Below are positions 31,501 through 37,500 of a DNA stretch of 64,000 nt, piece by piece. The notes below the pieces were generated by a model that ran no database searches, was not told the DNA's origin, and worked only from the letters and a program-made list of their open reading frames with translations. Numbering within the stretch: the first letter of the stretch is position 1; every line of letters starts with the position of its first letter. The DNA is from Antedon mediterranea (taxonomy: Eukaryota; Echinodermata; Crinoidea; Comatulida; Antedonidae), in assembly GCF_964355755.1 (NCBI RefSeq), contig NC_092679.1:248001-312000 (forward strand), in the 5' to 3' direction. A program made the position numbers and the translations under genes.

Positions 31501-34500
31501 TGTTTTGATTTACAAAATGTCATTCAGTAAAAAAGTTTGTATTTATATTTATACCTTTTGTAAAGTTACGTGTAGCTAAGCATTAAAAACATAGCATAAG
31601 ATTTAATGCATTGATTGTGCAGTGTGAATTATCTAAATTCTTAAACTAGAACTTTAACTCGCTGTATTATGTTAACTGTAAACCCAATAAACACATTCAT
31701 TTTCTGGTGCTAAAAATAGACTAATTACAGCAATTTGTACTACAATTTATTTAGTTACTATCTGTAATGCATTTTACAGTTGGTTACAAAACACTGATTG
31801 TGTTTAGATGTACAGACAAGCTTTGCAGATGTTATCTATACAATAGCCCTTGAGTATAATACATGTAATCTGCTACTGTTAGAAAAGAATACATTCTCGC
31901 CTAACCCATTGTTTAGAATTGTAATAGGTTCTATATTAGCAAGCATTGAACTGTAAAACCAATACAATAAGAGTCCCTTGTGTAAAAGAAAAACAAAATC
32001 ATTCCAAGCCTCCATTTATTTCAATACAAATATATCTTCACTGAAATTTATATTTTAATTATACTGTAGTACAAACATTCTGTGATTAAAAGTTTTATTT
32101 ATATAAAAACAAACTAAAATGAGATAAGGATTTACCACAGATAATCTGTATTCTTTTGAAGTTTTTCCAATTCTAATTTGTATCCAGTACAAAATATATA
32201 ATTTAGTATGATAAAAATTATATCTCTCTTGCCTGCTATGTTGATTGCTGGTTATAATCATAAATTTTGAATTAATCAATGTTTGCAAATCTATAGTATA
32301 TTTACTTTTGTACACTACAGTTAAATTTTTACGAGCTACATTTTATATTAACTTAAATATTTACAACATTAAATAAATTAGCAAGTATAATTTACTAATA
32401 TTCATCATTGTCTGTTGCATAATTAGTCTAAATTAGAGCTTGACTAAGAGCCTACTTAGTCGTTGCTGATGGTTCTAACAGGGAATTTAAAGCCTTCTTT
32501 CTAATGCCGGGATAAAGCTACACATTACAAGAGGGAGAACCACGGGAATTCGCTTATTTTAGCAATGGGCAAAAGAGATGGATTTCAAAATGCTTGGTGG
32601 ATAGCCATTAAGTACTTTGCAGCTATCTTACTTTTGCCATTAATGTTTATGTACTGTAAACTACATTGTCAGAACCCAATTCTTCACATCTGTACAGTAT
32701 GTCCAGTATCATAGTATTATGTTAAGGTTAGATTAGGTTTACATAGAGACACTGTATTTATTTGTCCAGTATCATAGTATTATGTTAAGGTTAGATTAGG
32801 TTTACATGGAGACACTGTATTTATTTGACTGTACAAATTGTGGATACTGTACCAAGAATTGGCTTGTTGGCCATGCTGAAAGAGATATGAGAAATAAACA
32901 TTAACCCTCTTAATATTTTATTTGATAGAAACTAGATCTAAATTACATTATAGTATATAAAACATTTGTTTAAACGTTTACTTTATACAGAGATTGTTGA
33001 TGGAAACTTGAAGATGACACTTGGTATGATCTGGACAATTATTCTCCGATTTGCCATTCAAGATATTTCTGTAGAAGGTAGAGTAAAGTGGATAAAATAT
33101 TTGTAAATTTCTAGTATAATCTAGTGTTCCTTAAGTCTTTACTACTAAGAACATTGGTATCCTCTGTTGATAGTATTACATCCTAATAATGAGATTTGAC
33201 CAAATATAATCCTGTTTATGATAGAGAAAACTTATTTAACTATTTATTTGATCCATGATTCTTAAAAGAATTTGTAATAATTTCAAGTAATTATGTTTGG
33301 TTGGCAGATCACTGTGCATACTTAGATTTAATTAGTTCATTGATATTATTATATGTGCGCATAATACAGTAAATAAACAGAGTAGTTAAAGTGGGTCATT
33401 TTAAAGTATCATAATAGTTATTAAAGATGTATTGTCCCTTTTACTAATTCTAAACAAATTTTGTTTTAAATATTTCGAAAAAAATTTGGTCATTTTGAAG
33501 TATCATAATAGTTATTAACTTTCACCAAAAATTAGTCAAAAAAAAAAAAATTTAACTGAAATACAGACGTTTTTTTGTTCCAAAAATAACTTTGACTTCC
33601 AGTCAAAGTTTTTGATCAAAACATATCTCATAATTCACCGCGCTTGTTTGGCTACTCTGTATGCATAATCATAAAACTTCTTCGCGATCTGTGTGAAAGC
33701 ACCTTCTAAACCGCGAAGAGTTGTAAATAATCCTAATTAGCATCATGCATAATGCATACTCGTGGTTTGAAATCTTTGTTTACTTTCGCTTGCGACGATT
33801 TTCTAGACGAAATGTAATTAAATTAATTTACCTGTTAATTACGTAAACTTGTTGTTTTTTGCTCGAATTTTCAACTTAAAGTGAATAACTTTAATATGGC
33901 CAATTTAAATTTAGAATATTTTGACCTTCATTTTTTGTGTCTCAAGGGAAAATACATCTTTAATCAGTCAAAAATTACACAAATCAATAGTGGTGTTGTT
34001 AGCTTACCTGGATAAACCAACATAGGCCTTTTTCCCTTGGAGGGGAGAACATAACTTCAAAAGTAATAACATTTTAAAGACTCCCTCCAAGCAAGTGGTA
34101 TCGTCAATGAACCGTGCCCTCAGATGAACAACAACGCCCATACATACCTCAATGCATTTCTTAACTAATATTTATTTCAATTCTCATAATTTAGTGAGGT
34201 GAAGAGCAACTTATTTTGTGACTGAATGGTTGTTGTTGAACTTTTGCTGTGCTTTGAATCAAGAACAATGTCTTGTTTAATTTGCTAACATTTTTGTTTT
34301 CCTTTTAAGTTGCATTTTTTTAGTAGTCTAACCTGATTGGATCATTTTCTGACTGTTAAATATTTTAACGCTGTAATTTTTATTTCAGAGCTGTCTTCGA
34401 AAGAAGGCCTCTTGTTATGGTGTCAGAGAAAGACGGCACCATACAAGAACGTCAGTATAAACAACTTCCACATTAGGTAAAAAAAACAAACGATTTCCCG

Positions 34501-37500
34501 CCTGTCTTGAGTTGTTTTGCTGCCGTTTTATAATCCTTTTAGAGTTTAGATTTTTTTTAATTTTCATAATATGCATGTCCATGTCTAATACCATGCATGT
34601 TGCGTGCTTACAGAGATGACAGCCAAAGAAGGATTATTGCTCTGGTGTCAGAGGAAGACTGCTCCTTATAAGAACGTCAACATTGCCAATTTCCATACAA
34701 GGTAACCTTAGGTCGTTAACGACAACGCAAAATATCTAAAATATTAGCGTATAAATATATTTTGTGATTTCCGTTTAACAGAAAAGAGTGCAAAAGATGC
34801 TTTGTTATTATGGTGTCAACGAAGAACCCAACCTTATGACAACGTGAACATTCGGAATTTTCATACTAGGTGAAATTTGAATATCGTCTTTCACCCCAAA
34901 TAAAGCCATCAAGATCATTTTAGAAATTAGTGGATTTCATTATTTTAATCATTTCATTTTGAAAAACATGATTCTAACATAATATAATTCAATTAGAGAT
35001 ATTTTATTAACAAATGACTGATATGGTTGAATACCTTCTTAGATTTTAGATTTGAATTATAAATAGAGTTTTTTGACATAGAATATTAATTTTTAAATAA
35101 GTTGCTGTAATTCTTAACTCTACTGATATTTAATAACAAGGTATTTGTAATATTAACATTCGTTTCTTATACCTTCTAAAAGGTAAGTATAACTTCTCTA
35201 CATTCTGTAGAATCCTTAAAGCCCTTTCTAGAAGACCGATTTTGTTTCACCCAGTTTGCCATCAAACAAACAATAAGTTTTGTACTCCTTATCCCCATTC
35301 CGAGAACACACCCTATAAGGAATCAGTTGTTTAGAGAACACACCCTATAAGGAATCAGTTCTTTAGAGAACACACCCTATAAGGAATCAGTTGTTTAGAG
35401 AACACACCCTATAAGCAATCAGTTCTTTAGAGAACACACCCTATAAGCAATCAGTTCTTTAGAGAACACACCCTATAAGGAATCAGTTCTTTAGAGAACA
35501 CACCCTATAAGCAATCAGTTGTTTAGAGAACACACCCTATAAGCAATCAGTTCTTTAGAGAACACACCCTATAAGCAATCAGTTCTTTAGAGAACACACC
35601 CTATAAGCAATCAGTTCTTTAGAGAACACACCCTATAAGGAATCAGTTCTTTAGAGAACACACCCTATAAGGAATCAGTTCTTTAGAGAACACACCCTAT
35701 AAGCAATCAGTTCTTTAGAGAACACATCCTATAAGCAATCAGTTGTTTAGAGAACACACCCTATAAGCAATCAGTTCTTTAGAGAACACACCCTATAAGG
35801 AATCAGTTCTTTAGAGAACACATCCTATAAGCAATCAGTTGTTTAGAGAACACACCCTATAAGCAATCAGTTCTTTAGAGAACACACCCTATAAGCAATC
35901 AGTTCTTTAGAGAACACACCCTATAAGCAATCAGTTCTTTAGAGAACACACCCTATAAGCAATCAGTTCTTTAGAGAACACACCCTATAAGCAATCAGTT
36001 CTTTAGAGAACACACCCTATAAGCAATCAGTTCTTTAGAGAACACACCCTATAAGCAATCAGTTGTTTAGAGAACACACCCTATAAGCAATCAGTTGTTT
36101 AGAGAACACACCCTATAAGCAATCAGTTCTTTAGAGAACACACCCTATAAGCAATCAGTTCTTTAGAGAACACACCCTATAAGGAATCAGTTCTTTAGAG
36201 AACACACCCTATAAGCAATCAGTTCTTTAGAGAACACACCCTATAAGCAATCAGTTCTTTAGAGAACACACCCTATAAGGAATCAGTTCTTTAGAGAACA
36301 CACCCTATAAGCAATCAGTTCTTTAGAGAACACACCCTATAAGCAATCAGTTCTTTAGAGAACACACCCTATAAGCAATCAGTTCTTTAGAGAACACACC
36401 CTATAAGCAATCAGTTCTTTAGAGAACACACCCTATAAGCAATCAGTTCTTTAGAGAACACACCCTATAAGCAATCAGTTCTTTAGAGAACACACCCTAT
36501 AAGCAATCAGTTCTTTAGAGAACACACCCTACAATAAGCAATCAGTTCTTTAGGGATCCAGAAGATGTTCATGTTTTACTATAGTTAGCTTTCTGAACTG
36601 AAAGATCACAATAATATATTAGCTCTGTCTGGAATTAACCGTTCTTCAAAATAATACAGTATCCAAATTTAGAATTAATAATAGTTTATTCTACTCATTC
36701 ATTCATAAACATAGTTTGTTAGTGAGGTATTTGTTAAGGAAACACAATTCTGAAACTATAATTTTAATCCAGATTTCTAAACAAATTTGAAATTAGCCTT
36801 TAAATCCAGACTTCTAAACACTAACATTTTCAAATTTCTTGCATTACCATATTCATGCTATAATTGTCAAAATGAAAATAATTTGCTAAAACACCTTTTT
36901 AAAACATTATTTCACAAATATTGGTCATTTTTTCTGTTCCATTAATTATAAGTTTGAGTTAACCATATTTCAACAAAGGAATCATTTGCCAAACTTATAA
37001 TCATAAAAAATGTGTATCTGGGAAACAATATCATTTATTTAATATTCCTTGAGAAACTTGTATCAGAAGCGTTCCAAAGTCTATAAATGTAAAAGCTATA
37101 TTTTAAGGGTGGAAGTCTTGTGCATTTCAACCTGGTGGTGCTATTGGTGGACTGGCTTCGCTGGTTTTATCATTTCATTCACAGGGTAGCATTTATTTAC
37201 AAATCATAGAAACAATGTTTTCACCCCAAAACTGAGCATAAATTCCTTATATACAGTACATGAGACCAATACAATCTTTCCTAAGAGGGATGTCCGATAG
37301 ATCCAAATAGATAGAAAGATGTCCGATAGATCCAAACTCTCCCAAGAGGGAGGTCCGATAGATCCAAATAGATAGATAGATGTCCGATAGATCCAAACTC
37401 TCCCAAGCGGGATGTCCGATAGATCCAAATTATTTTTACCATTAAAACATAATCATTCAGAACCTGACTTTTCCAGAAGACTCAATGGATGTCCCGTATT

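What the first reader, a model, noticed from the sequence alone, without database searches (positions are those of the whole stretch)
34389..34869. Triplet of mutually exclusive exons at the CH1-CH2 junction of alpha-actinin
Three tandem 88-nt exons with identical phases encode alternative versions of the linker and first CH2 helix. Since 88 leaves remainder 1, skipping all, or including two or three, breaks the frame; only one copy works. Vertebrate and fly alpha-actinins have alternative exons elsewhere in the actin-binding domain or EF-hand, but I know of no triplet here. Copy 4c changes several charges (Lys to Asp, Ala to Gln), so isoforms may differ in actin affinity or in the CH1-CH2 opening that regulates binding.
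Basis: partly seen in the sequence, partly recalled or inferred. Interest (0 to 1): 0.88.

Follow-up and report, generated by a model that had tools for sequence, protein, structure and literature searches.

The report
Three swappable exons in alpha-actinin
A gene for the muscle and cytoskeleton protein alpha-actinin carries three interchangeable versions of one small exon, which probably lets one gene make three forms that differ where the protein senses a membrane lipid signal.

Summary
Window 34389-34869 holds three 88-nt exons with AG/GT ends and identical phases, inside a complete alpha-actinin gene (22556-50043; 886 aa with any single copy). Skipping all copies, or joining two or three, gives a stop at codon 159 or 183. 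The copies are old and constrained: synonymous sites saturated, amino acids kept, flanking introns at background identity. Each version gives an intact CH domain; 4c scores highest. They are very probably functional mutually exclusive exons, but no RNA data were available, and 4c has the weakest donor site in the gene.

The exon encodes CH2 helix A plus the loop reported as the PIP2-binding segment (PMC1523333, passages). It carries two of three proposed PIP2-ligand arginines of ACTN2 (PMC4980809, passages): R163 is kept in all copies; R169 is K in 4a and 4b but D in 4c. Net charge is +2 in all. I favour isoform-specific phosphoinositide control over changed actin affinity. Tandem exons elsewhere in actinins are known (PMC9741552, passages). 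My searches found no description of this triplet, but a key survey (Lek 2010) was not held.

The parts
22556..22636 (+). alpha-actinin coding exon 1 (start codon)
31251..31485 (+). coding exon 2, CH1
32991..33077 (+). coding exon 3 (87 nt), end of CH1; its donor AAG|gtagag scores third lowest of 19 constitutive donors
34389..34476 (+). alternative exon 4a (88 nt): [30 protein letters not shown]
34477..34613 (+). 137-nt intron between 4a and 4b; TGCATG (RBFOX-type motif, name recalled) at 34572 and 34594
34614..34701 (+). alternative exon 4b (88 nt): [30 protein letters not shown]; weak acceptor, strong donor
34702..34781 (+). 80-nt intron between 4b and 4c, the shortest in the gene model (next 108)
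34782..34869 (+). alternative exon 4c (88 nt): [30 protein letters not shown]; charge-reversed at the residue equivalent to ACTN2 R169; weak donor TAG|gtgaaa
37555..37633 (+). coding exon 5 (79 nt), [21 protein letters not shown]...; carries the residue equivalent to ACTN2 R192
40000..50043 (+). coding exons 6-21: rest of CH2, four spectrin repeats, EF hands, stop codon

Best explanation
A single alpha-actinin gene carries a cluster of three old, selected, mutually exclusive exons. Each encodes the end of the CH1-CH2 linker, helix A of CH2 and the following loop. Splicing picks one copy; mRNAs with none, two or three copies are out of frame and should be destroyed or give truncated protein. 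The swapped segment is the phosphoinositide-binding site, so I propose that isoforms 4a and 4b keep PIP2 regulation (basic residues at the positions of ACTN2 R163 and R169, with R192 in the constant exon), while 4c reverses the charge at 169 and moves a basic residue to 174, altering or lowering PIP2 response with little change in F-actin binding. Shown in sequence: copies, phases, frame outcome, constraint, location on the reported PIP2 segment. Inferred: that each copy is used, tissue or stage choice, and the lipid effect. Enforcement most likely combines suboptimal splice sites, regulatory proteins (possibly an RBFOX-type repressor at 4b) and frame-based disposal.
For: Phases, ends and frame outcomes. 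Synonymous differences 15.0 of 16.8, 16.7 of 16.8 and 15.0 of 16.7 sites against nonsynonymous 9.0, 17.3 and 13.0 of about 67. 0 of 20,000 random-substitution simulations as conserved, for each of 3 pairs. A copy that drifted freely over 0.5 or more substitutions per site while its partner stayed fixed is rejected at P of 0.0018 or less for each of 3 pairs. Intron flanks at background identity. Each ABD version scores as a CH pair: 181.7, 183.8 and 184.4 bits for 4a, 4b and 4c. PIP2 segment 168-184 TAPYRNVNIQNFHLSWK (PMC1523333, passages): 15 of its 17 residues fall in the alternative exon. [quoted passage not shown] ACTN2 numbering from chain 7ank_A, exon start = 150. Two TGCATG 22 nt apart ending 15 nt before 4b; P of two or more in 137 nt 0.00075.
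Against: No RNA reads. The 4c donor scores below 19 of 19 constitutive donors and only at the 55.5th percentile of 1,557 GT sites in the gene. At a small neutral distance (0.3) free drift between 4a and 4c is not rejected (P 0.13), though their synonymous saturation argues against so short a distance. Net charge is +2 in all three copies, so 4c may keep some lipid binding through Arg174. TGCATG was picked after looking at ten patterns, and two such motifs within 60 nt occur at one other place in the window (46964 and 47014). No related genome could be compared.
Confidence: 0.5

Rival explanations
1. Functional mutually exclusive exons whose main effect is on actin binding or CH1-CH2 opening. 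Helix A of CH2 and the linker are swapped, so the closed-open balance of the actin-binding domain shifts.
For: The exon begins in the linker and covers helix A. PMC10046292 (passages) describes actin-binding sites across both CH domains and CH2 as a negative steric regulator; the residues at 151, 155 and 156 that differ in 4c lie near the linker.
Against: In an actin-bound homology model CH1 touches actin and CH2 does not (PMC11285078, passages). The core residues LLLWCQR are identical in all three copies, and the strongest charge change sits in the loop, at a proposed PIP2 residue.
Confidence: 0.28
2. One or two copies are decaying duplicates or poison exons whose only role is to add or remove a stop codon and so set the amount of alpha-actinin.
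For: Double inclusion or skipping gives an early stop. The 4c donor and the 4b acceptor are weak.
Against: A poison exon or relic need not keep its amino acids; these do, at saturated synonymous divergence. 4c gives the highest CH score of the three. AG and GT are intact in all three.
Confidence: 0.1
3. The isoforms differ in other partners of CH2 rather than in lipid or actin binding; 4c has drifted to resemble spectrin and may bind a spectrin-type partner.
For: Of 7 residues private to 4c, D155, A156 and R174 match the beta-spectrin-like gene of the same genome (L001). 4c matches that spectrin at 20 of 30 positions, 4b at 19 and 4a at 18.
Against: The difference is 1 to 2 residues in 30, which is not significant by itself; 4c is still closer to actinins (22 and 23 of 30 to ACTN1 and ACTN2).
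Confidence: 0.07

Closest known systems
Vertebrate ACTN1/ACTN4 exons 19a/19b (mutually exclusive, EF hand)
   Same: Tandem homologous exons in an alpha-actinin gene that exchange a regulatory site for a ligand (calcium) between isoforms (PMC4550062 and PMC9741552, passages).
   Different: EF hand at the C-terminus, two copies, calcium; here CH2, three copies, a proposed phosphoinositide site. No duplicate of the EF-hand exons, nor of any other exon of the model, was found in this window above 24 bits.
Drosophila Actn and C. elegans atn-1 tandem duplicated exons
   Same: Named in PMC9741552 (passages) among actinin genes with tandem duplicated exon substitutions; in fly the splicing lies in the ABD-coding region and separates non-muscle, larval and adult muscle forms (PMC4550062, passages).
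   Different: I recall that the fly peptide spans the ABD-rod junction rather than CH2 helix A; its exact exon was not seen in any call, so a shared position is not excluded.
Vertebrate ACTN1/ACTN4 alternative exon 8 (recalled)
   Same: Alternative exons in the actin-binding domain.
   Different: End of CH2 near the neck, not the CH2 start; two versions. From memory, no call.
Human ACTN2 PIP2 site (R163, R169, R192)
   Same: Residues 150-179 of ACTN2 correspond to the alternative exon.
   Different: In ACTN2 the site is one constant sequence; here 4c has Asp at 169.

Membership tests
alpha-actinin | Two CH domains, four spectrin repeats, C-terminal EF hands in that order | tested here: met
   Pfam on the 886-aa model: CH 2 stretches, Spectrin 4 stretches, EFhand_Ca_insen, EF-hand_1 and EF-hand_6 over their cut-offs; EF-hand_7 below its cut-off
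alpha-actinin | Ends in GESDL-type C-terminus and aligns along its length to human ACTN1 | tested here: met
   tblastn of a recalled ACTN1 sequence hits exons from residue 10 to 892, ending YGESDL
mutually exclusive exon cluster | Tandem homologous exons of equal or similar length with the same phases | tested here: met
   3 copies of 88 nt, same phases, 20-24 of 30 residues identical between pairs
mutually exclusive exon cluster | None, two or three copies break the frame | tested here: met
   5 of 5 other combinations stop early
mutually exclusive exon cluster | Each copy under purifying selection | tested here: met
   at neutral distance 0.3 the 4a-4c pair alone is not rejected (P 0.13)
mutually exclusive exon cluster | Usable splice sites on every copy | tested here: inconclusive
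   AG/GT on all, but the 4c donor scores below 19 of 19 constitutive donors and the 4b acceptor above only 2 of 19
mutually exclusive exon cluster | Exactly one copy in each mature mRNA | not testable with these tools
   no RNA data
docking site-selector RNA pairing clusters | One intron element pairing with a selector near each variant | tested here: inconclusive
   6 intron pairs against 12 shuffles each: 5 of 6 not below the lowest shuffle; one (4a-4b intron with 37480, -22.4) is just below the lowest shuffle (-22.0), but the real scan used finer steps (10 against 20), which favours it
PIP2-regulated alpha-actinin | Basic residues at ACTN2 positions 163, 169, 192 | tested here: met
   4a and 4b: R, K, R. 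4c: R, D, R, so not met for 4c at 169
PIP2-regulated alpha-actinin | PIP2 binding releases the calmodulin-like domain | not testable with these tools
   needs protein

The most novel reading that the evidence does not exclude
The cluster is a splice switch for lipid sensing: exon 4c makes an alpha-actinin with a natural charge reversal at a PIP2-ligand residue, so one invertebrate gene splits membrane-regulated and lipid-independent cross-linking between cell types, as vertebrates did with separate genes and with calcium through exon 19.
Probability: 0.33. Interest if true: 0.75.

Novelty: new variant of a known kind. Interest (0 to 1): 0.55.

Why it matters
If one gene swaps its phosphoinositide-binding loop by splicing, nature has already made the separation-of-function forms that biochemists build by mutation. 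That would allow a direct test of how far PIP2, rather than actin affinity, controls alpha-actinin at Z-discs and membranes. It would also extend the convergence noted in PMC9741552, where actinin is one of twelve families with tandem duplicated exons in vertebrates, arthropods and nematodes, to a triplet at the start of CH2.

Tried and rejected
Docking-selector RNA pairing: no clear signal (one of six pairs marginal with a scan that favours it). Further duplicated exons: none above 24 bits in the window outside the model. Duplicate EF-hand or ABD-end exons: none seen in the same search. A second alpha-actinin gene: 12 matches in G000, of which 4 are this gene (three copies and exon 5) and 8 lie elsewhere; of these 8, I read 5 as loci: 4 show other CH proteins (a beta-spectrin-like and a large spectrin-like gene, and two more distant), 1 (L005) showed nothing through my text filter; 3 were not read.

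Species: COX1 gave no match; a paper search for 18-chromosome genome notes listed 28 of 31 papers, none of which I recognised as fitting 354 Mb. Sialyltransferase matches were many and hemerythrin none (control rang in 7 of 14). Molluscan haemocyanin and cuticle-protein searches found none, but no control genome rang either, so they show nothing.

Relatives: scans of viral contigs and genome contigs gave 10 and 67 pattern matches and no confirmed relative. Literature: five searches aimed at this triplet or actinin exon duplication and four at the PIP2 residues.

Full report
Observation. The window (64,000 bases, 32% GC) is part of contig 10 of a 354,431,138-base genome in 18 contigs. On the plus strand, a complete alpha-actinin gene runs from 22556 to 50043. 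With a recalled human ACTN1 as guide I fixed 21 coding exon positions with GT donors and AG acceptors; the joined protein has 886 residues and the Pfam architecture of an alpha-actinin: two CH stretches, four spectrin stretches and EF hands. Position 4 is present three times: 34389-34476, 34614-34701 and 34782-34869, each 88 nt.

Frame logic. Each single copy gives 886 residues; the five other combinations tested (none, three pairs, all three) stop after 158 or 182 codons. This supports exclusive use but does not prove it.

Are the copies alive? Between pairs, synonymous differences reach 15.0 of 16.8 (4a-4b), 16.7 of 16.8 (4a-4c) and 15.0 of 16.7 sites (4b-4c), so synonymous distance is beyond estimation, while nonsynonymous differences are 9.0, 17.3 and 13.0 of about 67 sites. 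With the same number of substitutions at random, 0 of 20,000 simulations kept the amino acids as similar, for each of the three pairs; absence of a stop alone is not striking (17-25% of simulations). If only one copy had drifted freely, a neutral distance of 0.5 or more is rejected for each pair (P 0.0018 or less); at 0.3 the P values are 0.027, 0.0034 and 0.13. Intron flanks show 15-50% identity in 20-nt bins, so the duplications are old and only the exons are kept. The ABD with 4a, 4b and 4c scores 181.7, 183.8 and 184.4 bits against the Pfam CH model: 4c is not degraded.

Splice sites. Against matrices from 19 constitutive donors and 19 acceptors of the same gene, 4a scores above 3 of 19 donors and 9 of 19 acceptors, 4b above 11 and 2, 4c above 0 and 7. 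Every copy is thus suboptimal on some side, as regulated exons often are (inference), but the 4c donor (TAG|gtgaaa) is a real point against its common use. Intron 4b-4c is 80 nt, the shortest in the model (next 108); a steric block between 4b and 4c is possible, while 137 nt between 4a and 4b makes it less likely there (inference from recalled distance limits). Two TGCATG motifs lie at 34572 and 34594, just upstream of 4b; under a first-order model two or more in 137 nt has P 0.00075, but I looked at ten patterns and one other close pair exists in the window. RBFOX binding upstream of an exon usually represses it (recalled), so 4b would be lowered where RBFOX is high. A search for docking-selector pairing was inconclusive.

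What the segment does. In ACTN2 numbering (chain 7ank_A, exon start at 150) the exon is residues 150-179: linker end, helix A and the following loop of CH2 (helix naming recalled). [quoted passage not shown] 15 of these 17 residues are in the alternative exon and WK in exon 5. The paper uses another numbering, three higher. [quoted passage not shown] Here 163 is Arg in all three copies, 192 (constant exon) is Arg, and 169 is Lys, Lys and Asp in 4a, 4b and 4c. PMC11285078 (passages) gives an actin-bound model where CH1 touches actin and CH2 does not. I therefore rate altered lipid control above altered actin affinity. Against this: 4c also gains Lys151 and Arg174, the net charge is +2 in all copies, and a basic residue five positions away might replace the lost one.

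Private residues are 4 in 4a, 3 in 4b and 7 in 4c, against the other copies and human ACTN1 and ACTN2. Three of the seven in 4c (D155, A156, R174) match the beta-spectrin-like gene of the same genome (L001); overall identity to it is 18, 19 and 20 of 30 for 4a, 4b and 4c, too small a difference to build on.

Known context. PMC4550062 (passages): invertebrates generally have one actinin gene; exon 19a/19b in vertebrates switch calcium sensitivity; fly actinin is spliced within the ABD region into non-muscle, larval and adult muscle forms. PMC9741552 (passages): the actinin family is among twelve families with tandem duplicated exon substitutions in vertebrates, arthropods and nematodes, interpreted as convergence; most tandem-exon isoforms there are tissue-specific. 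The present case is the same kind of device with three copies at the start of CH2. I found no report of it in searches of the held open-access library; Lek et al. 2010, which I recall as a survey of invertebrate actinin gene structures, is not held, so prior description is possible.

Organism. Unknown. 150 exon-level sialyltransferase matches suggest a deuterostome by my recollection of that family's spread; hemerythrin gave none. The echinoderm guess is neither confirmed nor excluded.

Verdict. The triplet is real, old and selected (confidence about 0.85 that the three are functional mutually exclusive exons); the phosphoinositide reading is the best-supported mechanism that I can offer (about 0.5 jointly with the splicing claim; about 0.33 for the strong form in which 4c is largely lipid-independent).

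Noticed in passing
window 35302-36553: Array of 39 copies of a 32-nt unit, 97% matches, in the intron just downstream of exon 4c. It could affect splicing of the cluster or vary between individuals.
   Followed up: partly
window 53312-56770 (+): Open frame of 1153 aa of a non-LTR retrotransposon: endonuclease and reverse transcriptase by Pfam, with an N-terminal GDVSLNPGP stretch resembling a 2A-type motif (name recalled).
   Followed up: partly
window 58498-63691 (+): At least seven repeats of a similar open frame beginning HQLF(R/G)LKLTL in the ORF list: a large tandem or satellite-like unit.
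   Followed up: no
window 34712-34723: Perfect 12-nt palindrome GTCGTTAACGAC ten bases into the 80-nt intron between 4b and 4c (read).
   Followed up: no
window 40000-40081 and 40349-40434: The last ABD exons, where vertebrates have alternative exon 8 (recalled), show no duplicate here.
   Followed up: partly
window 12064-12222 and 14812-17250: A GNAT acetyltransferase exon (Pfam) next to open frames that look like a crooked-neck type splicing factor (by eye, not searched); I recall NAA20 and CRNKL1 as neighbours in human too.
   Followed up: no
G000, many contigs: 150 exon-level matches to the sialyltransferase family PF00777, several in tandem runs on contigs 5, 7 and 9.
   Followed up: no
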